From Candidatus Rifleibacteriota bacterium (GTDB lineage: Bacteria; Muiribacteriota; Ozemobacteria; Ozemobacterales; Ozemobacteraceae), in contig JAAYVD010000163.1 of the NCBI GenBank assembly GCA_012517355.1, positions 1 through 34,009 of the forward strand: a DNA stretch of 34,009 nt, read 5' to 3'. Position numbers and translations under genes: made by a program. Of this stretch, positions 255 through 34,009 are shown piece by piece (within the stretch, counting starts at the first letter, position 1; every line of letters starts with the position of its first letter). The notes below the pieces were generated by a model that worked only from the letters and a program-made list of their open reading frames with translations, ran no database searches and had not been told where the DNA came from.

Positions 255-935
255 TCAGCCGCGCCGGGGGGCGGGTTTTCTCCGGTACGGGGCGGCCGGC
301 TCCCGGACGGCGGGCACCCCTCCCCTCCGGGAGCCCGGGGCGGGTGCTTCGGTGGCCGGCCCCGGGAAAACCGTGGTCAGGTCGATCGAACAGCCTTCCA
401 ACACCCCCACGGGAACCTGCTGGTCCCGGGCGAAGGTCCGCGGACGGCCATAACGCGCGTCGGGGCCGAGGTGGAACACCATGACCGTCCCCTCGGGATG
501 CACGATCCAGTATTCCCGGACCCCGTGCCGCTCGTAGAGGTTCAACTTGCGGACCTGGTCATGCGACACGGTGGCCGGTGACAGGATCTCCACCACGAGA
601 TCGGGAGCCCCGAGGCACCCCCGGGGGGTCCGGCGGGCGGGGTCGCAGACCACGACCAGGTCGGGGAGGACCACCGTGAAGTCCTTCTTCCGACCGGGCC
701 TGGCTTCCGGCAACCGCACCTCGTACGGGGCCGGAAACACCTGGCAGGGCTTGCCGAGCAGGAAGTTGGCGAACTGGCGGCCCAGGTCCATGGCCACGGC
801 CTGGTGGGCACTGCCGGGGGCCGCCACCATGTCGAACATCTGGCCGTCGATGAACTCGCACCACTCCCCTTCCGGCAACGCGTCATATTCCTCGATGGAA
901 TGACGTCGTCGACGCCTGGTCACGGTTCCGGCCAT
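255..935 (-). CDS. Uma2-family putative endonuclease (intact copy)
   Basis: This 226-residue protein has the Uma2 pattern: an N-terminal IEEYDALPEGEWCEFIDGQ, then FLLGKPCQVFPAP, VVLPDLVVVCDP, GAPDLVVEILSP and VRKLNLYERHGVREYWIVHP. The PD...E...K residues of the PD-(D/E)XK nuclease fold are all present. The ATG at 935 was chosen because AGGAGG lies 5-6 bases upstream; an in-frame ATG 27 codons earlier (1016) has no such site and adds non-conserved sequence. The C-terminal ~35 residues are proline- and arginine-rich, as in the other Uma2 copies here. It lies 194 bases downstream of the ATPase-nuclease gene on the same strand. The family assignment is secure; substrate and role are unknown. Confidence 0.88.
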   Translation of the reverse strand: MAGTVTRRRRRHSIEEYDALPEGEWCEFIDGQMFDMVAAPGSAHQAVAMDLGRQFANFLLGKPCQVFPAPYEVRLPEARPGRKKDFTVVLPDLVVVCDPARRTPRGCLGAPDLVVEILSPATVSHDQVRKLNLYERHGVREYWIVHPEGTVMVFHLGPDARYGRPRTFARDQQVPVGVLEGCSIDLTTVFPGPATEAPAPGSRRGGVPAVREPAAPYRRKPAPRRG

Positions 936-8474: not shown

Positions 8475-10166
8475 TCAGGACCCGGGGTGGTCCGGGCGAC
8501 CGAGGACTTCCAGGGCTTCGGCGGAAAGGTACATCACATCGAGTTGCCGATCCTGATCGAGAGCCGCCTTCCTCTGTTCCGCGGGGATCCGGGCGAGGGT
8601 GGCGGCGTCCAACCGGAGGCCGACCGCACCCTCAGGATCGCCGTCATCCACGTCGAAGACGGTGCCGGTGAACCCCCCGATGGGGAACCGGTGGTTGTCG
8701 GGGTCGAACATGCCGTCCTTCACCCTGACCCGGGCGCCCACCCGGATGGCCTCTTTGCGATGCGCGATACTGGCGTTTCGCGGCCCCCTCCGTGGCGGCA
8801 AAGGGGAAACCCTTCCGACATCGTGTCGGTCGGGCCCGGGCGGCTGGGGCGGGAGCGGCCCGTACAGGGGGAACCGGGCGAGGGCCGCGAGCCAGGCGTT
8901 GAACCGGTGGTGTTCCCCCATCGTCTCCCGTTTGAGCTCACGGCAGACGGCCTTCCAGGCGTCGCGGTCGCCGGGGGTCAGGACCCCGTGTTCGTGCAGG
9001 AAGTCGGCCAGGAGGGAGACCCCGGTCAGGGCCCCCAACCAGCGCGGCAGGCTGGGTTCCGACCGGGCCCGGCAGCGCGCTTCCAGGAAGCGCTTCAGGG
9101 CGTCGTGGTCGGGGCGGTAGACGTTTTTCACGACGCGCGATTCCGACAGCCGGAACAACAGGAAATCGGTCGCCTGGCCGCGCAGGAAATCGGCCGCGGA
9201 CCAGGGCACCCCGACGGTGTCGTGCAGGTGGCGCAGGAACGACCAGCTCTGCTCGCCGACCGCCTGGTCCGGGGCGGCGGCGGAGCCGGCCGCCGGGTTC
9301 CAGACGACCGGCGCGCCGAGGATCTTCCCGACCCCCTCCTCGGCATCGGCGAATTCCTGCGGCTGCATCTTCATGCCGACGTCGGCGTGCCAGGCGTCAA
9401 GGACCCGGCGCCGATCCTCGGCGGAGAGGGGATGTTCGAGGACGTCGCCGAGGGTGACCGAGCTGAACAAGCCCATGAGCCGGGTCTGGACCTCCAGGTC
9501 GAGGATGAGGCGGAGCCGGGGGGTGATGCGGCGGACGAGGTCCGCGAGGGGTTCCCGCCGGCCGGTCAGCAACAGGAATTCGGCGAACTGGAAGGTGGTC
9601 TCGAAGTCGCGCGCCGGGTCGGCCGCGACGAACCCGGACAGGATGGCCGTCAAGTCGGCTCGCCCCGCGGTCTCGGCCCACCAGTACAGGTTCAGGAAGA
9701 CGTTCGTTCCCCCTTTTCCGAACACGGCGGGGAAATCCCGGGCCAGCGCGCAGCTGGCTTCGATCAGCGTGGCGGGGGGTGTCCCGTCGGCGGGATCGGG
9801 GGACAGGAGATCTCTCAGTTCTTCGATGACCAGCTCGTCGAAGCATGCGGGCAGGGGGTCGTGTTTTTGCAGGAACTCCTGCAGCAGGGCCATCTTGCCT
9901 GCCGCCCCGTCTGCCTCACCCAGGGCCTTCTCGAGACGGTCGGCCTCCGCCTCCAGGGCGGGATCGGGCGGGGGCGGGGGATCCCGCCTGGCGCTCCCGG
10001 GGGCCCGCGGCTGGAACAGGCCGGCCCACCCGTCATCGGGATCCGGGCGCAGGTGTGAGGGAAGTTTTTCTTCCTGGCGCCGCTTCTCCTGGTGGGCGTC
10101 CCAACAGCACTTCTTGTATTTCTTCCCGCTGCCGCACGGGCACGGGTCATTCCTGCCTGATTCCAT
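8475..10166 (-). CDS. SEC-C motif protein with C-terminal SH3-like domain
   Basis: The N-terminus is GRNDPCPCGSGKKYKKCC, a textbook SEC-C zinc motif (CxC-x8-CC), as found at the end of SecA and in many stand-alone proteins. The middle ~400 residues are helical and unrecognised. The last ~90 residues (GARVRVKDGMFDP, GGFTGTVFDV, MYLSAEALEVL) look like a small beta-barrel of KOW/SH3 type. ATG 10166 is used because the motif follows at once and GGAAG lies ~7 bases upstream; in-frame ATGs at 10178 and 10196 are alternatives. It is the first gene of the operon with the Snf2 ATPase, which starts 4 bases after its stop. About 27 residues near the start of the C-terminal domain are encoded by an in-frame dispersed repeat (8753-8834). 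Confidence 0.83.
   Translation of the reverse strand: MESGRNDPCPCGSGKKYKKCCWDAHQEKRRQEEKLPSHLRPDPDDGWAGLFQPRAPGSARRDPPPPPDPALEAEADRLEKALGEADGAAGKMALLQEFLQKHDPLPACFDELVIEELRDLLSPDPADGTPPATLIEASCALARDFPAVFGKGGTNVFLNLYWWAETAGRADLTAILSGFVAADPARDFETTFQFAEFLLLTGRREPLADLVRRITPRLRLILDLEVQTRLMGLFSSVTLGDVLEHPLSAEDRRRVLDAWHADVGMKMQPQEFADAEEGVGKILGAPVVWNPAAGSAAAPDQAVGEQSWSFLRHLHDTVGVPWSAADFLRGQATDFLLFRLSESRVVKNVYRPDHDALKRFLEARCRARSEPSLPRWLGALTGVSLLADFLHEHGVLTPGDRDAWKAVCRELKRETMGEHHRFNAWLAALARFPLYGPLPPQPPGPDRHDVGRVSPLPPRRGPRNASIAHRKEAIRVGARVRVKDGMFDPDNHRFPIGGFTGTVFDVDDGDPEGAVGLRLDAATLARIPAEQRKAALDQDRQLDVMYLSAEALEVLGRPDHPGS
8753..8834 (+). repeat. Multi-hairpin dispersed element inserted in frame in the SEC-C gene
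   Basis: This segment begins CTTTGCGATGCGCGATAC and ends CCGACATCGTGTCGGTCGG. It matches the reverse complement of the tandem units at 33852-34009, including the CGTTTCGCG, GTGGCGGCAAAGGGG and CCGACATCGTGTCGG blocks. Inside the SEC-C gene it is read without a stop, giving RHDVGRVSPLPPRRG and RNASIAHRK between the helical middle and the SH3-like end. Its low similarity to any protein and its identity to intergenic repeats show it is an insertion. Confidence 0.8.
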
Positions 10167-10196
10167 GATCACTTCCATGGATTGCTCGCCGATCAT

Positions 10197-10647: not shown

Positions 10648-11286
10648 TCAGGCCGGGCAGCTCAGGAGGGCGTCGAACCAGGTCCGTTCCCGGGCCCGGA
10701 AAAAGGCTTTGACCTGAGCCCAGGTCGTGCCGTCCAGGCTGATGGGTTCCGGATCCGGCTCGGCATCCTCGAAGAAGAACAGGGAGCGGAGAATGTGGTA
10801 GCAGTTGATCTTCCGTTCACCGTATTTGTCGAGGAACCACCCCTTGACCTGCTCCGGGTCCGAGGTCTGCATGATCTTGTAGAGGTCGTAGAAGTCCTTC
10901 TTCGTTCCCCGCTGGGAGATGGCCACGACCTTCATGGCGGCGATGTCGGGGACCGCCGCCAGCATGAGCCCGTCCCCGGGAACCGGCGGGCTGATCCAAC
11001 GATAGGGATACCGGAGAAACGAAGCCTTGGCTTCCCCGAACCTGACGTGGAGGGTGCCCTCCTCGAGGGAGACCGTCGTTCCGCCGAGTTCCAGCAGGGT
11101 CTGCTCCAGGAGCTCCGGCCGAAAATCCTGGGTCGTGAAGAAATCCAGGTCGAAGCTCCGGCGATGGCCCACCTGAACCGCCAGGGCAGTACCACCGGCC
11201 AGGACAAAGGGCCCCGTGACCGCCGGCCGATCCGCCAACTGGCGCCAGAGCCCCTGCAACCCGGGGGTCAGGACTTCCGCAAACAC
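10648..11286 (-). CDS. AbiEii/AbiGII-type nucleotidyltransferase (toxin)
   Basis: The 212-residue protein has FVLAGGTALA (27-36), HRRSFDLDFF (41-50) with the GG...DxD nucleotidyltransferase pattern, and the second family motif MKVVAISQRGTKKDFYDLY (118-136). These define the DUF1814/AbiEii toxin family, DNA-polymerase-beta-like enzymes; studied homologues add nucleotides to tRNA. GTG 11286 is chosen because GAGGA lies 6 bases upstream and the start falls inside the 3' end of the antitoxin gene (19-base overlap), the usual coupled arrangement. A longer frame from 11409 adds only shadow sequence of the antitoxin. Together with the upstream gene it forms a putative toxin-antitoxin or abortive-infection module. 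Confidence 0.85.
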   Translation of the reverse strand: MFAEVLTPGLQGLWRQLADRPAVTGPFVLAGGTALAVQVGHRRSFDLDFFTTQDFRPELLEQTLLELGGTTVSLEEGTLHVRFGEAKASFLRYPYRWISPPVPGDGLMLAAVPDIAAMKVVAISQRGTKKDFYDLYKIMQTSDPEQVKGWFLDKYGERKINCYHILRSLFFFEDAEPDPEPISLDGTTWAQVKAFFRARERTWFDALLSCPA

Positions 11287-13326: not shown

Positions 13327-15336
13327 TCAGAGGAGGCCCCGCGAGCGGAGCCAGTCGGCGGTGGTGCGGGTGGTGGTGTATTCGCCGCGCCAGCCGGTGA
13401 TCTCCAGGTGCCCGGTGTCCAGGGCGCGTTGCACCGCGGCGTAGGGGATGCCGAGCGCGCGCAGGTCGGCCATCTTGAGGAGGCGGCGCGGCTGGCACAG
13501 GTCGAGTATCTTGCGGGACGGGGCCGCAGCCGGGGATGGAGCCGGTTTGGGGCGGGCCGGGGCCGCGGCCCGGCGGGGAGTGGGGCGAGCGGTGGAGCGG
13601 GCGGTGGCTGGAGCTTTGGCCTTGGCTCGGGGATTGGCGGGGCGGTTGGTAGAGCGGGAGGTGGAGCGGGCGGTGGCAGGGGCTTTGGCCTTGGCTCGGG
13701 GAGCAGTGGGGAGGTTGGTGGGGCGAGTGGTGGAGCGGACGGCGGGCGGCGGGGGCTGCCGCCCGGCGGGAGCCGGACGGTCGGTCGTCGACGGCCGGGT
13801 GGCCGCCTTCCCTGGGCCCGATGGTCGCGCGGCCGGGCTCGCCGGGGCCTTGCCGGTCGTTTCCCCGGCTTTCGGCGAAAGGGGAACGACCGGCGATCCC
13901 GTCGCCGGATTCGCCGCCACCGTTCCCGCCGACCGGCGGAGTTTCTCCACGACCCTCTTCAACGGCAGCCGGGTCGGCATTCCTGACCCCCGGGCCGTCG
14001 CCGGAGGGGCGGCCGTCCCCGCCCGACAGGCCGTCGGCAGGGCGCCCTTGCCCGCCGGGCGGGCGGGGGCGTGAGGGGCGGGGGCCTCCACATCGACGGG
14101 ACGGCCGGTGATGGGGTCGAACAGGGAAGCAACGAAGGCTTCGACGGGGGACGGTTCGCGGACCGGTTCCTTCGGCATGGGGGCAAAGCCGGAACCCGGG
14201 GCCGGCGGAACCGCCGCCCTGGGAGCGCCGGCGGCCGCGGCACCAGGAGCAGCGCTCTCGAAGCCGGCGGCGGTCGAGCCCGGCCGCCCCGCGGCCTTGG
14301 GGTCGATGGCACCCGGGACAGGCATGGCCGGAGTCCTGGACCTGCCGGAACCCGGGCCCTGTGCAGGCACGTTTGCGCCGCCGGAGCCGGCGGCGGCGCG
14401 CCTCCCCCCGGTCCCGGAGCTGACCGCAGCCGGGGCCGACCGGGCCGGAGCATCGGAGCGGCCGGAACCTGCGGCTGACGTTCCCGTGGCCGCCGTTCCC
14501 GTGGCCGCCGTTCCCGCGGCCGACCGGGTGGACAGCTCGATGCCAAACACGGCGCCGAGCTCCTGCACCGAAGCGCCGGCAAGCGTGTCTGGCGCCGGAC
14601 CGACGCCCGCGCCAGCCACCGGCACATCCAGCCCGGCGGTCGTGGCGGCGGCGGCGAACGCGGTGGGATCGATGCCGCGCAGGGTGAAGAACAGCTCGGG
14701 ATTCGCGTCGAACCGGACGCCGATGCCGTAGAGCACGGCGGCGACGTGCTTGCAGACGCTGGCGTGGTCGGGGCATGAGCACTGGAAATCGATGTCGCGG
14801 GGCTCGGGGAACAGCCCCCGCTTCGGCTCGGCGAGGATGTTCATGATGTTCCTGTCGAGCCTGCCGCTGAGCAGGTCGATGGTCGAGCCGATGTCGGCGG
14901 CACAGCGGTCGCACAGATCCTGCCGCCGGTCGGCCGCCAACGCCTTGATACGGATCTCGACTTTGTACAAGGAACTTCCCTGCACCAGGCCGCGCACCAC
15001 GCCCTCCCCGATCTGCAGGTCGATGACGGCGCCGCACCGAACGTAGGACCGGCCGCGGGGCAGCCGGTTGGCGTAATCGCCGAAATACTCGAGGTTGCGG
15101 CACCACGACAGGCCCCACCAGGTGTGGCAGATCTCGCGACCGGCCACCTCGATCGGGTGCAGGGCGCGGCCGCTCTTCCCCAGCTCGCGGGCGGCCTGTT
15201 CCGCGCGCTGCCGCTTCTCGGCGACCGAGACGTAGGGGCCGAACCCTCCGTAGCCGTAATCCCGATAGTTGTACCGGGAGGACGGGCGGGACGAGGAGCG
15301 GGAAGACCGGTAGCGCGACGAGGAATAGCGTGCCAT
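13327..15336 (-). CDS. SWIM zinc-finger protein with histone-like repeat tail
   Basis: Residues ~65-205 form the conserved part: GREICHTWWGLSWCRNLE, YVRCGAVIDLQIGEG and the SWIM finger CSCPDHASVCKH (C186, C188, C195, H197; CxCxnCxH). SWIM proteins of this type occur beside Swi2/Snf2 ATPases (the YwqB/YwqA pair of Bacillus). The partner ATPase is the next gene upstream here. The first 35 residues are Ser/Arg/Tyr-rich. Residues ~280-610 are low-complexity Ala/Pro/Thr/Lys, including AATGTAATGT repeats and a 23-residue tandem unit with PRAKAKAPATARST (~555-600) like a histone H1 tail. The last 60 residues (KILDLCQPRRLLKMADL onward) look like a folded helical domain. ATG 15336 gives the complete N-terminus. 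Expected role: DNA- or protein-binding subunit of the Snf2 ATPase. Confidence 0.85.
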   Translation of the reverse strand: MARYSSSRYRSSRSSSRPSSRYNYRDYGYGGFGPYVSVAEKRQRAEQAARELGKSGRALHPIEVAGREICHTWWGLSWCRNLEYFGDYANRLPRGRSYVRCGAVIDLQIGEGVVRGLVQGSSLYKVEIRIKALAADRRQDLCDRCAADIGSTIDLLSGRLDRNIMNILAEPKRGLFPEPRDIDFQCSCPDHASVCKHVAAVLYGIGVRFDANPELFFTLRGIDPTAFAAAATTAGLDVPVAGAGVGPAPDTLAGASVQELGAVFGIELSTRSAAGTAATGTAATGTSAAGSGRSDAPARSAPAAVSSGTGGRRAAAGSGGANVPAQGPGSGRSRTPAMPVPGAIDPKAAGRPGSTAAGFESAAPGAAAAGAPRAAVPPAPGSGFAPMPKEPVREPSPVEAFVASLFDPITGRPVDVEAPAPHAPARPAGKGALPTACRAGTAAPPATARGSGMPTRLPLKRVVEKLRRSAGTVAANPATGSPVVPLSPKAGETTGKAPASPAARPSGPGKAATRPSTTDRPAPAGRQPPPPAVRSTTRPTNLPTAPRAKAKAPATARSTSRSTNRPANPRAKAKAPATARSTARPTPRRAAAPARPKPAPSPAAAPSRKILDLCQPRRLLKMADLRALGIPYAAVQRALDTGHLEITGWRGEYTTTRTTADWLRSRGLL
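13510..13745 (-). repeat. Tandem coding repeats in the SWIM protein tail
   Basis: A 69-base unit encoding PRAKAKAPATARST plus ~9 variable residues occurs twice in full, with a partial third upstream. The encoded peptide is lysine-, arginine-, alanine- and proline-rich. A separate 15-base triplet repeat (GTTCCCGTGGCCGCC-type) occurs at about 14482-14520 in the same gene. Confidence 0.7.
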
Positions 15337-15777
15337 GGAAGTGCCTCTTTTTGGAAGGAATGAAGGGCGTCGTCTGGGGAATGATCGGAGGGCAGCCCCG
15401 GGGACGGGATCGGAGGAAAGGGCCTGACAAAGTCTCAGGAGGGTGGGGGCGAAGCTGATCAGCGAGCGCCGACCGAGGAAATGCTCGAAAACGCGGTCAG
15501 GGAATCATGACCTGGAGTGAAGTCGAGAACGCGGTCAGGGAACCATGACCTGGAGTCAATTCGAGAGGGCGGCCAGGGAATCATGACCGGGGTTGGGATC
15601 AAGAGCCTGATCGGGGAATGTTGACCACGGTTGGGACCGAGGACGGGAGAAGGGCACCCTGACCGAGGTCGGGATCGATGACGGGATCACGGGACCTGGA
15701 TCGGGAACGGGTCGCGGTCATGAGACCGCAGAACCAGGACAACAACGGCTTCTTGGACGATGATAGCAGATGCGCCG
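15337..15777. other. Gap between the Snf2 and SWIM genes, mostly tandem array
   Basis: This 441-base gap has no convincing gene. Most of it is the 38-bp array at 15485-15712. The remaining 15337-15484 is upstream of the SWIM start and should hold its promoter and ribosome site, but I see no clear boxes (GGAAG lies close to the start). Confidence 0.6.
15485..15712. repeat. 38-bp tandem array, about six decaying units
   Basis: Units start at 15485, 15523, 15561, 15599, 15637 and 15675, each exactly 38 bases. The first three share TCGARARSGCGGYCAGGGAA as outline and continue with YCATGACC. Later units diverge progressively but keep the ending GGTTGGGA or GGTCGGGA and the period. Units 1 and 2 contain the inverted repeat GGTCA...TGACC. 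There are no unique spacers, so it is not CRISPR. Confidence 0.85.
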
Positions 15778-26402: not shown

Positions 26403-27137
26403 TCAGGCCTGCCGCTTCGGATTCCGGCCCGCCGCCTTTTTGCGGGGACGGGCGCGGGGACGGGCGCGGGGGCTGGCGCGGGGCCGCGGCGTTGGCTGGG
26501 TTTGGGCGGCCTGCCGGGCCAGGTACTCCCGCCGGCTCTCCCGGACGACCGTCTCCAGGGGAGGGAAAAGCAGGCTCAGATCGGTCTCGAGCCCGGGAAG
26601 CACCGAGACCGCCACTTTCGATTCCCGATCGTGGTAGTGGGGCTTGCCATACGTCCCATCGGAGCCCAGATGGAAGACGGTGACGATGCGGTCCGCCGGG
26701 TGGACCAGCCAGAACTCCCGCACCCCGGCCTGTTCGTACAGCCGACGCTTGCGGAGACAGTCGTGCGAGGCGGTCGACGGAGAAAGGATTTCGATGGCCA
26801 GGTCGGGCCCACCCCGGATCCGCTTGCCGTCCATCTTGGTTGGGTCGCACACAACGACCAGATCGGGCCGGACCACGGTTCGGACCTGATCGTCGGCCTC
26901 ATCGGCCCTTGGAAGGATCACATCGGGGTCTGGGAAGACCCGGCACGGTTTCCCCCGCAGAAAGGTGCGGAACTGGGTGACCAGTTCGGCCAGCAATTCC
27001 TGGTGATCGAGGGCCGGAGCGGCCGTCATATCGAACGCTTCGCCGTCGATGATCTCCCACCGTTCACCCTCAGGCCAGGTCAGATAATCGCCGTAGGTGA
27101 ACGTTGCCGCCCGCGGGGCCTGCCTGGGGTGTGTCAT
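26403..27137 (-). CDS. Uma2-family putative endonuclease with basic tail
   Basis: This 244-residue protein is a complete Uma2 copy: FTYGDYLTWPEGERWEIIDGE, FLRGKPCRVFPDP, VVRPDLVVVCDP, GPDLAIEILSPS, LRKRRLYEQAGVREFWLVHP. The PD...E...K catalytic pattern is present. The last ~30 residues are arginine/proline repeats (PRASPRARPRARPRKK), probably nucleic-acid-binding or disordered. ATG 27137 has GGAGG 8 bases upstream. The gene is bracketed by inverted purine-rich/CACCACAGAG elements, and its product is closest to the truncated copy at position 1. An apparent much longer frame (to 29174) is coincidental openness of GC-rich DNA. Confidence 0.88.
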   Translation of the reverse strand: MTHPRQAPRAATFTYGDYLTWPEGERWEIIDGEAFDMTAAPALDHQELLAELVTQFRTFLRGKPCRVFPDPDVILPRADEADDQVRTVVRPDLVVVCDPTKMDGKRIRGGPDLAIEILSPSTASHDCLRKRRLYEQAGVREFWLVHPADRIVTVFHLGSDGTYGKPHYHDRESKVAVSVLPGLETDLSLLFPPLETVVRESRREYLARQAAQTQPTPRPRASPRARPRARPRKKAAGRNPKRQA

Positions 27138-27433
27138 GCCTTCCTCCCTGCCGGGTTTCGGGGTCTGTTTCCAGTCTAGCACCGGGGTTTCACTCCGACA
27201 AGGCAGCCCCTTCCTTATACCCTCTGTTGCTCCCCTCTTCCGAACCCCTTGACCGCAACCCACTCTCTCCGGGAGGCTCGGTGGTTGCTCCCCGTCCACT
27301 CTCCCCACCCTCGCTCCTGCCTGTCCTCCTCTGCGTCTTCGTGCCTCTGGGGTGAATCCTCCGGTCCCTCGCCTTGCTTCCCTCTTCGGTTCCGCTCTCC
27401 GGTTCCGCTCTTCCGAATTTCCTGGGCTCTGTC
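27138..27433. repeat. Pyrimidine-rich inverted flank of the Uma2 gene
   Basis: The plus strand here is pyrimidine-rich, the mirror of 26160-26320. Its reverse complement contains GGATTCACCCCAGAGGCACG, GCAGAGGAGGACAGGCAGG and GGAAGCAAGGCGAGGG. These align with the left flank (GGAATTCACCACAGAGGCGC, then CAGGCAGGAAGCGGAGGG). No gene is seen on either strand. Confidence 0.65.
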
Positions 27434-28702
27434 CTAGAAGGCCATGGCCACCGCGCAGCCGAGCAGGATGCCGAGCGGGTAGGCCCACTGGAACAGCGCG
27501 TCGAGGGCCATCGCCGACCGGATGCGGCCGCGCTTGGCATGGTTGTTGGCGACGACGGTCTGCACCAGCGCCGAGAAGATGAAGAGGTAGAAGATGATGA
27601 AGATCTTGTCGGACAACACCAGGTAGCCGACCGCCGGCAGGGCATCGGCCTGCGAGATGTGGAGGGCGACGGCGGTCAGCAGGGCCGTCACACAGATGCC
27701 GCACTGCGCCTCGAACTCCCGCGCGTTGATGTAGAAGACCATGTAGGCCATCCCCGCGATCACCAGCAGCGGGATGATGAACTTGATGAAATGCGGCACG
27801 AACAGCCGCTCGAGGCGGGTCTCGAAGTGGAACCGGTGGTACTGCGTCTGGGTCGCCGGCGAGGTCACGTTGTCGCCGAAGTCGGTGTCGTAGAGGTGCA
27901 GGTCGGTGAAGGCACGAGCCCCGGCCACCTTCCAGTCGGGAACCTGGACCCCCGCCTCGACCCAGCGGCTCTGGTCGGGGTTGTTGGGGTCGGCCTCGAA
28001 GCGCAGCTTGTCGGCGTTCAGGGTCTGGTCCTCGAACACGATGGGCAGCCGCTGGCTGTCGAAGGGGTAGGACCGCAGGTTGAACCTCCCCCGGAACGTC
28101 CCCTTGATGCGCTGCGAGGCGTATTTCACGCCCGCCAGGGTGTCGGTGGCCAGCGGCGTGGCCGACTCGACGGTCCCGTTCATGAACTCGATGTCCGCCG
28201 GCGTCCAGGGCAGGTCGGGGCGGTCCGGCCACTTGTACCAGATGTAGAAGTCGGCGTAGAACTGGTTCTCCTTCATGTCGAGCCGCGCCAGGTCGAGCAC
28301 GTACAGCCCCACCTGCACCCGCAGCGGCCCGGAGGCCTGGTCTGATGCCGGGTTCTGGGAAGGGGAAGGGGAAGGGGAAACCGAAGGAGAAGGGGGCTGG
28401 GAAGGGAACACGCCGGCCGCCGGGGGAGCCGTGACCGGGCCACGGGGGGCGTCCGCTCCGGGGCCGCTGGTCGCCGGGTCCGTCGGGGATTCCCCGGGGA
28501 TCGCGCCTGCCACCGGAGCCACGGAGGCCCGGCCATTCCCGCCCGCGCCGTTCGGAACGGGCGAGGCCGGGGCGCCGGCTGGGGTCGCGGCTTCCGGGTC
28601 GGGCCCTGAGCCAACCCTGGAGCCGCCGTCCTGACCATGGCCGACGGCCGTCCATAGCAACCCGATCATTCCCAGCACGAACATCCAGCGGTATGTCTTC
28701 AC
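27434..28702 (-). CDS. Prokaryotic pentameric ligand-gated ion channel (Cys-loop receptor homologue)
   Basis: The protein has 422 residues. GTG 28702 is chosen because GGAGG lies 9 bases upstream and it gives a clean signal peptide (MKTYRWMFVLGMIGLLWTAV, cleavage near 23). Residues ~24-125 are a Pro/Ser/Ala/Gly linker, unusual for the family. The ligand-binding domain follows (VGLYVLDLARLDMKENQFYA, WPDRPDLPW, SYPFDSQRLPI at 211-221, the loop equivalent to the eukaryotic Cys-loop but without cysteines). Then come four membrane helices: M1 ~302-325, M2 ~332-350 (CGICVTALLTAVALHIS, pore-lining), M3 ~361-386 and M4 ~402-421. It should form a pentameric cation or anion channel in the inner membrane. 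The ligand is unknown. It is monocistronic, with 500 bases of non-coding DNA upstream. Confidence 0.9.
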   Translation of the reverse strand: MKTYRWMFVLGMIGLLWTAVGHGQDGGSRVGSGPDPEAATPAGAPASPVPNGAGGNGRASVAPVAGAIPGESPTDPATSGPGADAPRGPVTAPPAAGVFPSQPPSPSVSPSPSPSQNPASDQASGPLRVQVGLYVLDLARLDMKENQFYADFYIWYKWPDRPDLPWTPADIEFMNGTVESATPLATDTLAGVKYASQRIKGTFRGRFNLRSYPFDSQRLPIVFEDQTLNADKLRFEADPNNPDQSRWVEAGVQVPDWKVAGARAFTDLHLYDTDFGDNVTSPATQTQYHRFHFETRLERLFVPHFIKFIIPLLVIAGMAYMVFYINAREFEAQCGICVTALLTAVALHISQADALPAVGYLVLSDKIFIIFYLFIFSALVQTVVANNHAKRGRIRSAMALDALFQWAYPLGILLGCAVAMAF

Positions 28703-29204
28703 CGGCCGGTCCCTCCACCCAGATGATTCTTCCCTGACTATCGTCATCGGGGAGGAAATTCCGGACCCCCGGCCCTCCCAGCCGGAGGGGGCCCCCCGCC
28801 ATCCTGACCGTCCGCCCCCGACGCCGCGGGAAACCCACGGGCCATCCGGCCAGTTGTGGCCGGATGGGGGGAATCGCAGGTCGCACCTCTGCCTGCCCAG
28901 GCGCGGCACGCCGCCCACGGGTCACCCGGCCGGCAGGGCCACAAAAGTGAAGGTCCGCCAGGTTCCTCTGGCACCCCAGGACCGGCGGGACCCGCAGCGG
29001 GACGCTGGCCGGCGTGGCCTGACGGAAGGGGTGGGCAGGGCCGTCCCGTCCATCCTCTTCCTCCCCGGCCCGGCGGCGCGGATGGCCGGCCGGAAGGAGC
29101 CGCGCGGCGTCAGGGGGAGAAGGGGACCGGGCGGTTCCGGCCCGGTCCTTCCTCTTCACCCGTCGTCGCGGCACGACCGGCGGGTGGACGGTGCGATTCC
29201 GGGC
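28703..29204. other. Non-coding gap with a perfect 10-bp hairpin
   Basis: The frames here are open but have no recognisable protein. CATCCGGCCA/TGGCCGGATG (28843-28866, loop GTTG) is a perfect stem without a T-run. The region must carry the promoter of the channel gene on the minus strand, but no clear boxes were found. Confidence 0.55.
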
Positions 29205-29861
29205 TCAGCCCTTCTTCTTCGCGGGGCGGCGGCGGCGGGGAGGGGCCGGTGGTGGGTCTTCCCGCACCACGGACGGTTCGGCGGGGAAGACGAGGCCCAG
29301 GTCGATCTGCAGCCCCGGAAACAGCGGGGTTTCGGCCAGCCCTTCCGGAGACAGGAAGATGGCGGGGCCGAACCCCTTGCCGTCGAGGTTGCGGAGCACG
29401 ATGATGACCCGGTTGGCGGGGTCGACGAGCCAGTATTCCCGCACTCCGGCCGCCTCGTAGACCCGGCGTTTCCGGATGCAGTCCTGCGAGGAGGTCGAGG
29501 GGGAGAGGACCTCCACCACCAGGTCGGGGGCGCCGCGGCAGACCTTGCCGTTCAGCTTGCCAGGGTCGCAGATGACCATGACATCCGGCTCGACCATCGT
29601 TGCCACCCGTTCGTCGGGTTCCCCGGCCTTGGGAAACAGGACACCGAAGGGTCTGACCAGCACCTTGCAGGTCTTCCCAAGAAAGAAGTTGGCCATTTGG
29701 CGGTACAGTTCCCCAACCACCTCCTGGTGCCGTTGGTTGGGCGGGGGAACCATGGCCACGGCCTCCCCGTCGATGAGTTCCCAGCGTTCGTCCTCGGGCC
29801 AGGTGCAGAGGTCGCCGTAGGTGAACCGCCCGTTCGGATTCGTCACCGGATGGTTTTTCAT
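29205..29861 (-). CDS. Uma2-family putative endonuclease
   Basis: The complete 218-residue copy has FTYGDLCTWPEDERWELIDGE, FLGKTCKVLVRPFG, MVEPDVMVICDP, GAPDLVVEVLSPS, IRKRRVYEAAGVREYWLVDP, a D...E...K nuclease pattern, and a short basic tail (PPRRRRPAKKKG). ATG 29861 has AAGGAG 6 bases upstream; the longer frame to 30035 would read through a dispersed repeat and is rejected. Relative to the other copies it has a shortened segment before the tail. Role unknown. Confidence 0.9.
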   Translation of the reverse strand: MKNHPVTNPNGRFTYGDLCTWPEDERWELIDGEAVAMVPPPNQRHQEVVGELYRQMANFFLGKTCKVLVRPFGVLFPKAGEPDERVATMVEPDVMVICDPGKLNGKVCRGAPDLVVEVLSPSTSSQDCIRKRRVYEAAGVREYWLVDPANRVIIVLRNLDGKGFGPAIFLSPEGLAETPLFPGLQIDLGLVFPAEPSVVREDPPPAPPRRRRPAKKKG

Positions 29862-30099
29862 GGTCCGCTCCTTGGGCCGGGCGGGGCCAGCCCGCCGCCC
29901 GATCGACACGAGGTCGGAAGGGGTCTCCCATGCTGCCATGGATGACGGCGCGAAACGCGAGCTCCGCGCCCCGCGAGGAGGCCGTCCGTCCTTTTCATTG
30001 TAGACAGGACGCCCCCCCGGAAGCAACCGGGGCAACCGGCGAAATTCCCCCCCGAAAGGTCACCGATTCGCCCCGTTCTGCCGATAGAGGATCTGGAAT
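29862..30099. other. Short divergent gap holding a copy of the multi-hairpin element
   Basis: It separates the minus-strand Uma2 gene from the plus-strand TPR gene. About a third of it is the diverged repeat at 29900-29975. A small stem CCCCGG/CCGGGG lies near 30015-30035. Promoters for both genes should be here but none is clear. Confidence 0.5.
29900..29975 (-). repeat. Diverged copy of the multi-hairpin dispersed element
   Basis: On the plus strand CGATCGACACGAGGTCGGAA, then TGCCATGGATGACGGCGCGA and AACGCGAGCTCCGCGCC align with the right-end unit (CGACCGACACGATGTCGGAA, CCATGGATGGCGGCGCGAAA). Several stems are partly lost, so this looks older. It lies 39 bases upstream of the Uma2 start. 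Confidence 0.65.
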
Positions 30100-33822: not shown

Positions 33823-33851
33823 CACCCCCCTCCCGCGCCGCATCGCCGACC

Positions 33852-34009
33852 CGACCGACACGATGTCGGCCATACCCCTTTGCCGCCAGGGACGGCGGCG
33901 CGAAACGCCCGTTTCACGCACCGCAAAGGGGCCGACCGACACGATGTCGGAAGTGCCCCTTTGCCGCCATGGATGGCGGCGCGAAACCCCCGTTTCGCGC
34001 ATCGCAAAG
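33852..34009 (+). repeat. Two tandem copies of the ~80-bp multi-hairpin element
   Basis: Unit 1 is 33852-33932 and unit 2 is 33933-34009 (cut by the window end). Each holds CCGACACGATGTCGG, then CCCCTTTGC pairing with a distal GCAAAGGGG. Inside that outer stem are two hairpins: in unit 2, CCGCCAT/ATGGCGG (33964-33979) and GCGCGAAAC/GTTTCGCGC (33979-34000). The layout could fold as a three-way junction. Unit 1 has a few mismatches in its stems. Confidence 0.85.

What the first reader, a model, noticed from the sequence alone, without database searches (positions are those of the whole stretch)
33852..34009. ~80-bp element with a potential three-way-junction fold, tandem and dispersed
Stems pair CCCCTTTGC with GCAAAGGGG around two further hairpins, next to a CCGACACGATGTCGG palindrome. 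Four copies of different age are in this window and no transposase is visible. It may be a non-autonomous mobile element or a structured RNA.
Basis: partly seen in the sequence, partly recalled or inferred. Interest (0 to 1): 0.52.

Follow-up and report, generated by a model that had tools for sequence, protein, structure and literature searches.

The report
Folded mobile repeat flooding one genome
A short DNA repeat that can fold into three hairpins has spread to hundreds of places in one unnamed bacterial genome, mostly between genes but sometimes inside them without breaking the reading frame, and nothing recognisable that could move it was found beside it.

Summary
The window has exactly four copies: 33851-33931 and 33932-34009 (tandem, + strand), 8750-8833 (- strand) and 29899-29981 (+, decayed). 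In 1.90 Mb read of the 7.11 Mb genome there are 228 units (0 in the reversed control), or roughly 850 genome-wide by extrapolation. Each unit is a conserved head hairpin followed by a three-way-junction core, 81 or 84 bp. A second core type (60 bp) shares the head and joins the first in mixed head-to-tail arrays. Stems change less than loops, and 10 of 27 pairs show double-sided changes. Units lie mainly in intergenic DNA, without orientation preference, target-site duplication or terminal inverted repeats. A few lie in frame inside genes. The clearest is mutY, where 46 residues stand in place of 3 in two relatives. Of 24 genomes held for the class, only this one and one congener carry the repeat. 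Each has one RAYT gene, but both RAYTs are flanked by a different palindrome. Best reading: a non-autonomous, REP/RPE-like mobile repeat whose single-strand fold is needed to spread and not to serve the host at each site. The mobilising enzyme is unknown. It is a new variant of a known kind.

The parts
33851..33931 (+). unit 1 of the tandem array, type A, CCATA linker, 81 bp (CCGACC...GGGG)
   Evidence: minimum-energy fold is the three-way junction plus head hairpin
33932..34009 (+). unit 2 of the tandem array, type A, AAGTG linker, cut by the contig end
   Evidence: 88% identity to unit 1
33851..33869 (+). head CCGACCGACACGATGTCGG: hairpin CCGAC/GTCGG shared by both core types
   Evidence: 322 genome matches within 2 mismatches, 0 for the reversed pattern
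33875..33931 (+). three-way-junction core: outer stem CCCCTTTGC/GCAAAGGGG, hairpin CGCC/GGCG, hairpin GCG.GAAAC/GTTTC.CGC
8750..8833 (-). type A unit, 84 bp variant (AAGGGTTT linker), inside ORF 8478-10196 (-) in an open frame
   Evidence: 82% identity; coding score positive on both sides and low inside
29899..29981 (+). old, decayed type A unit, mostly intergenic
   Evidence: 71% identity; fold no better than shuffles

Best explanation
It is a non-autonomous mobile repeat of the small-palindromic class. Shown: one head hairpin plus a folded core (type A, 81/84 bp, three-way junction; type B, 60 bp, one long hairpin) is dispersed by the hundred, in singles and in head-to-tail arrays of 2-4 units that can mix the two cores. 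It begins at a sharp 5' boundary (CCGACC, after a weakly preferred G-W-C) and is followed by CC-N-W-CC, without target-site duplication. It lies mostly in intergenic DNA and a few times in frame inside genes. Inferred: an unidentified enzyme acting in trans recognises the folded single strand (ssDNA or RNA), using the shared head and the stem base of the core, and inserts it next to short CC-containing targets. Arrays arise by local duplication or by insertion at the end of an older copy. After insertion a copy decays without selection on its fold. Insertion right after a stop codon, or in frame (81, 84 and 60 are multiples of three), harms the host least, so those copies persist. I favour transposition through a folded single strand by a Y1/RAYT-like or other unidentified enzyme; which enzyme is open.
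For: Copy number and spread: 228 units below E 1e-4 in 1,897,061 bases (17 contigs), 0 in the reversed sequence; head pattern 173 + 149 matches in the whole genome, 0 for the reversed pattern. Recent bloom: within the class (24 genomes held, all one family) 2 of 24 carry the head, 2 of 24 the covariance model; congener G001 has none, and 400 kb of it hold no comparable repeat; congener G002 has 14 heads, mostly with the type B core. Structure: 89.4% of pair cells paired against 39.5-42.4% for slid controls, 10 of 27 pairs with double-sided changes, covariation score 0.110 against 0.090 +/- 0.004; substitution rate paired 0.085 against unpaired 0.207 in copies with an intact head, 0.202 against 0.313 in those with a damaged head, so stems and loops gain changes about equally afterwards. 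A G002 unit has its head stem changed on both sides at two pairs. Modularity: 5 of 8 full-length type B units abut a type A unit (with the places). Context: 119 of 176 arrays lie outside my gene calls (12% expected at random), 57 inside them; gene-pair classes near expectation (67/24/27 against 67.0/31.2/19.7), and no link with GC skew. Extra stretch holding the element shown at two genes: mutY, LPWR-46 residues-DPYAILVSEIMLQQTQ against LPWR-ETR-DPYAILVSEIMLQQTQ in G001 and G002; SpoIIE-type phosphatase, region absent from a paralogue and a G001 homologue.
Against: No mobilising enzyme was identified. The one Y1/RAYT gene in the genome, and the one in G002, are flanked by another palindrome and not by this element. 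No target-site duplication and no terminal inverted repeats, so the standard marks of transposition are missing. The inserted stretches in mutY and in the SpoIIE gene exceed one unit, so neither is a clean single-unit empty site. Members of an array often share rare variants, which fits passive tandem duplication. RNAalifold left to itself does not recover the fold on the full alignment. G-T against A-C changes, 19:6 in the score-chosen set, fall to 50:41 (p 0.40) when copies are grouped by their head, so the strand that acts is not shown.
Confidence: 0.72

Rival explanations
1. REP-type element mobilised by the genome's own RAYT (Y1) transposase, working in trans although the RAYT carries another REP.
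For: G000 and G002 each have one RAYT and both carry the element; G001 has neither. No TSD, no TIR, hairpins and a short 5' target preference are what Y1 enzymes leave (recalled from the IS200/IS605 literature).
Against: RAYT genes normally sit among their own REPs, and here both are flanked by GTTCGGTATCATGTCCCCGGAAC-like palindromes. No GTAG or CGTC tag next to the head hairpin. Only three genomes are compared; 12 of 24 class genomes have a Y1 gene and only two of these have the repeat.
Confidence: 0.2
2. A structured RNA or nucleoid/terminator element kept at each site for a host function.
For: Strong fold, double-sided changes; slight excess between convergent genes, 27 against 19.7 expected.
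Against: No orientation preference relative to genes or GC skew, gene-pair classes near expectation; old copies lose the fold and stems gain changes about as fast as loops; absent from a congener; copies inside genes.
Confidence: 0.08
3. Passive amplification: replication slippage and gene conversion at hairpins spread the unit without any dedicated enzyme.
For: Head-to-tail arrays whose members share rare core variants; unit lengths are kept in arrays.
Against: Hundreds of dispersed single copies with a sharp 5' boundary and a target preference, 7 of 66 starting exactly one base after a stop codon, are not what slippage gives.
Confidence: 0.08
4. In-frame insertion is an evolved property of the element (all six frames open, lengths multiples of three), as argued for Rickettsia palindromic elements (recalled).
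For: Consensus units of both types have no stop in any frame; 99 of 109 full copies have a length divisible by three; arrays between two coding flanks keep the frame 14:5 (threshold 0.3) or 8:5 (threshold 0.5) against 82:169 in control gaps at 0.5.
Against: Shuffled units have no stop in 10-41% of cases, so openness is not beyond chance; the lengths reflect two or three ancestral forms; survivors in genes are filtered by selection.
Confidence: 0.15

Closest known systems
REP elements (GTAG and CGTC superfamilies, PMC3733652)
   Same: High-copy, mostly intergenic short palindromes; some intragenic, often in DNA-repair genes; CGTC families also lack a dedicated transposase (abstract and sections 5, 6, 15 read).
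   Different: Those units are 20-40 bp single hairpins with a GTAG or CGTC tag; here 81/84 or 60 bp with a head hairpin plus a branched or long core, no such tag seen, and head-to-tail arrays, which that paper reports as absent or under-represented (GTAG) or negligible (CGTC).
Rickettsia palindromic elements (RPE; read in PMC2229807 section 9)
   Same: About 100 bp folded repeats, intergenic and fused in frame into conserved protein genes; no known mobilising enzyme (the last point recalled).
   Different: No sequence comparison with RPE was made; here most copies are intergenic, some tandem and modular, in a GC-rich genome of an unnamed lineage.
MITEs
   Same: Small, non-autonomous, dispersed, absent from relatives.
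   Different: No terminal inverted repeats and no target-site duplication.
BOX elements of pneumococcus (recalled, not read)
   Same: Modular small repeats.
   Different: No sequence link tested.

Membership tests
REP (GTAG/CGTC) | 20-40 bp single stem-loop | tested here: not met
   81/84 or 60 bp with two to four helices
REP (GTAG/CGTC) | unpaired GTAG or CGTC tag at one end of the stem | tested here: not met
   head is preceded by CCGA; the sequence CGTC occurs only in the variable 3' flank (CCGTCC); read by eye, no systematic scan
REP (GTAG/CGTC) | cognate RAYT flanked by the repeat (GTAG type) | tested here: not met
   RAYT loci L210 and L308 hold no copy (nhmmer up to E 10) and carry another palindrome
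MITE | terminal inverted repeats | tested here: not met
   ends CCGACC... and ...GGGG-CCNWCC are not inverted repeats of each other (by eye)
MITE | target-site duplication | tested here: not met
   no register above expectation in 122 and 74 arrays
RPE-like palindromic element | in-frame copies inside conserved protein genes | tested here: met
   mutY against G001, G002, G011 and PDB MutY; SpoIIE gene
RPE-like palindromic element | sequence relation to Rickettsia RPE families | not tested
   no RPE sequence was compared
Rfam structured RNA | match to a curated family | tested here: not met
   0 matches at gathering threshold in the window
Mobile element in general | presence/absence between relatives at orthologous sites | tested here: met
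   two genes only; the inserted stretch exceeds one unit
IS200/IS605-type non-autonomous derivative | cleavage of folded single-strand ends by a Y1 enzyme | not testable with these tools
   needs biochemistry

The most novel reading that the evidence does not exclude
A modular class of mobile repeat in which one conserved head hairpin is the recognition module and is combined with interchangeable folded cores (three-way junction or long hairpin), moved through a folded single strand by an enzyme not yet known, and assembled into mixed head-to-tail arrays.
Probability: 0.2. Interest if true: 0.65.

Novelty: new variant of a known kind. Interest (0 to 1): 0.42.

Why it matters
Small palindromic repeats are widespread, yet for many families (CGTC REPs, RPEs) it is not known what moves them. 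This family is young, very abundant, absent from one congener and rare in another, and has two interchangeable cores on one head. That makes it a good natural experiment for asking which structural parts are recognised. The in-frame copy in mutY, a DNA-repair gene, adds a case to the reported tendency of such repeats to sit in repair genes.

Tried and rejected
Rejected: (1) RAYT as proven cognate enzyme, because both RAYTs have their own palindrome. (2) Strand-specific RNA action from G-T excess: 19:6 in the top-scoring copies, but that set was chosen by a score that favours intact stems; with an independent grouping 50:41, p 0.40. (3) Evolved six-frame openness: shuffles reach it in 10-41% of cases. 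(4) Target-site duplication: one weak 4-mer signal in a broad scan did not survive a register-wise test. (5) Replication or transcription orientation: no bias. (6) Window copy 8750-8833 as a datable insertion: no orthologue in the genus beyond the short SEC-C motif. (7) GlcNAc-2-epimerase gene with three antisense units: no homologue at E 1e-10 in either congener. (8) Known RNA: Rfam 0 matches. (9) Phages, plasmids, viral contigs: no match. The organism could not be named; a paper search on a guessed phylum gave nothing usable.

Limits: the gene caller is home-made (coding fraction 0.877). The 17 contigs read are not a random sample, since all but the window contig were chosen because a repeat or RAYT match lay on them, so 850 copies is a rough extrapolation. 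E-values from model R1 are rough, and cmsearch drops overlapping tandem units. The alignment A1 took 67 of the 69 references prepared; two (L200:15094-15164 and L180:9786-9868) were left out. A3 was a hand-picked 10 of the type B units seen.

Full report
OBSERVATION. The tandem at the window's right end is real: period 81, 88% matches, score 255. The window holds four copies: 33851-33931 and 33932-34009 in tandem, 8750-8833 on the minus strand, and a decayed one at 29899-29981. The contig ends inside the second tandem unit.

GENOME-WIDE. The window is contig C64 of a 7.11 Mb assembly. A first BLAST-type search scored 40 of 483 candidates and reported 67 matches. I then read 17 contigs, 1,897,061 bases. 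An iterated profile search found 228 units at E below 1e-4, 145 of them below 1e-10, and none in the reversed sequence. Scaled by length this is about 855 units, a rough figure because the contigs were not a random sample. The head pattern with up to 2 mismatches has 322 matches in the whole genome and 0 for the reversed pattern. The 228 units form 176 arrays: 134 single, 33 double, 8 triple, 1 quadruple.

ANATOMY. A unit is head CCGACCGACACGA(T/G/C)GTCGG, a variable linker (AAGTG, CCATA or AAGGGCTT) and a core. The type A core has an outer stem CCCCTTTGC/GCAAAGGGG, a hairpin CGCC-ACGGAT-GGCG and a hairpin GCGCGAAAC-loop-GTTTCGCGC. Of 109 full copies 76 measure 81 and 21 measure 84. A second core, type B (GGGCCGCGGGCGCC-ACGGAT-GGCGC...CCGCGGAC, unit 60 bp), shares head and linker. 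It dominates in congener G002, and 8 full-length examples occur in the 1.9 Mb of G000. Five of these 8 abut a type A unit in the same orientation (C13, C124, two on C71, C153; with places).

STRUCTURE. On 67 aligned copies 89.4% of pair cells form standard pairs, against 39.5 to 42.4% when partners are slid; 10 of 27 pairs carry a double-sided change; the covariation score is 0.110 against 0.090 +/- 0.004 in shuffles. Many such cells are inherited, not independent. RNAalifold without a given structure returned only a 3-pair hairpin on the same alignment, I think because old copies dilute it. In type B, one G002 unit has its head stem changed on both sides at two neighbouring pairs; the inner hairpin of type B is misaligned by a one-base shift, so its counts there (40% paired) are not evidence either way. 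When copies are grouped by damage to the head alone, substitution rates in the core are 0.085 paired and 0.207 unpaired (119 copies), 0.192 and 0.329 (60), and 0.202 and 0.313 (14); 35 of 228 copies lacked enough of the head and were dropped. The gap between stems and loops is thus already present in fresh copies and does not widen, as expected if the fold matters for propagation and not afterwards. This is an inference: detection by profile favours conserved columns.

CONTEXT. With a home-made gene caller (1427 genes, 87.7% coding), 119 of 176 arrays lie outside genes against 12% expected at random; 36 lie inside in sense and 21 in antisense, many at doubtful gene starts. Gene-pair classes are near expectation (tandem 67, divergent 24, convergent 27, against 67.0, 31.2, 19.7; 118 arrays with both neighbours), and neither GC skew nor neighbour orientation matters. 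The 5' boundary is sharp at CCGACC, with a weak preference for G, A/T, C just before it; the 3' side reads CC-N-W-CC. Seven of 66 arrays that follow a gene end start exactly one base after the stop codon. No target-site duplication was detectable in 122 or 74 arrays.

INSIDE GENES. Where both flanks are coding, the frame is kept 14:5 (threshold 0.3) or 8:5 (threshold 0.5), against 82:169 in control gaps at 0.5; in two of the eight there is a stop between the flanks. The clearest case is mutY (C153:33049-34065, minus). It is named by TIGR01084 mutY (E 1.4e-49, 169.1 bits, below that model's curated cut-off of 286.5) and by PDB MutY chains, the best of which keeps 2 residues where this protein has 45. 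Congeners G001 and G002 read LPWR-ETR-DPYAILVSEIMLQQTQ; this genome reads LPWR, then 46 residues of which 28 are the element, then DPYAILVSEIMLQQTQ. The second case is a HAMP/SpoIIE protein (C7:132391-135588) whose paralogue and G001 homologue lack the region. In both the extra stretch exceeds one unit, so earlier insertions or flank growth are involved. The window's own copy at 8750-8833 also lies in an open frame with coding signal on both sides, but no orthologue was found for comparison.

RELATIVES AND ENZYME. The class is represented by 24 held genomes of one family; only G000 and G002 carry the head and match the covariance model. G001, same genus, has none by pattern, and 400 kb of it have no 17-mer repeated six times or more. 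Y1/RAYT genes (PF01797) occur once in G000, once in G002 and not in G001; 12 of 24 genomes have one. Both RAYTs lie among palindromes of the GTTCGGTATCATGTCCCCGGAAC type, and neither 3 kb locus holds this element. No phage, plasmid or viral contig match.

COMPARISON. PMC3733652 (abstract and sections 5, 6, 15 read) describes REPs of 20-40 bp with GTAG or CGTC tags, intragenic REPs often in repair genes, CGTC families without a dedicated transposase, and head-to-tail dimers as absent, under-represented or negligible. PMC2229807 (abstract and section 9 read) summarises RPEs fused in frame to Rickettsia proteins. The present element resembles both in behaviour, fails the REP tests on length, tag and RAYT adjacency, and fails the MITE tests on inverted repeats and target duplication. 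I therefore call it a new variant of the small palindromic mobile repeats. I did not find this family in print in the searches, which were few and not aimed at an organism name, since none is known.

VERDICT. A real, abundant, recently expanded non-autonomous repeat with a single-strand fold. It is well supported as mobile DNA, moderately supported as fold-dependent in its spread, and its mobilising enzyme is unknown.

Noticed in passing
L210 (G000:C109:2887-6213) and L308 (G002:C123): Single RAYT gene in each of two congeners, each flanked by inverted copies of a different palindrome (about GTTCGGTATCATGTCCCCGGAAC); a related 17-mer GTCATGTGTCCCCGAAA occurs 14 times in 1.9 Mb of G000.
   Followed up: partly
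window 27437-28318 (-): ORF matching the pentameric ligand-gated ion channel transmembrane region (PF02932, E 7.8e-11) and weakly the ligand-binding domain.
   Followed up: no
G000, G001, G002: Large expansion of HAMP/SpoIIE-type phosphatases: 53, 41 and 23 matches at E 1e-20 to one query.
   Followed up: no
window 258-878, 26403-29174 and 29208-29939 (-): Three Uma2-family (PF05685) putative endonuclease ORFs in one 34 kb window, plus an AbiEii-type ORF at 10651-11286 and two SNF2 helicases.
   Followed up: no
window 34009; G000:C30:1-173; G002:C204:1-108; G002:C41:10636-10667: Contigs begin or end inside arrays of this repeat, so array lengths are probably under-reported in these assemblies.
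   Followed up: no
G000:C13:151931-152013 (-): A copy that has lost hairpin 2 exactly, leaving a single long hairpin CCCCTTTGCCGCC-atggat-GGCGGCAAAGGGG.
   Followed up: no
window 13585-13742 and 15485-15588: Unrelated minisatellites of period 69 and 38 bp (TRF).
   Followed up: no
head position 14 (window 33864): T, G or C at this base switches which of the two overlapping CCGAC arms can add a sixth pair (CCGACA/TGTCGG or CCGACC/GGTCGG), giving two registers of the head hairpin in predicted folds.
   Followed up: partly
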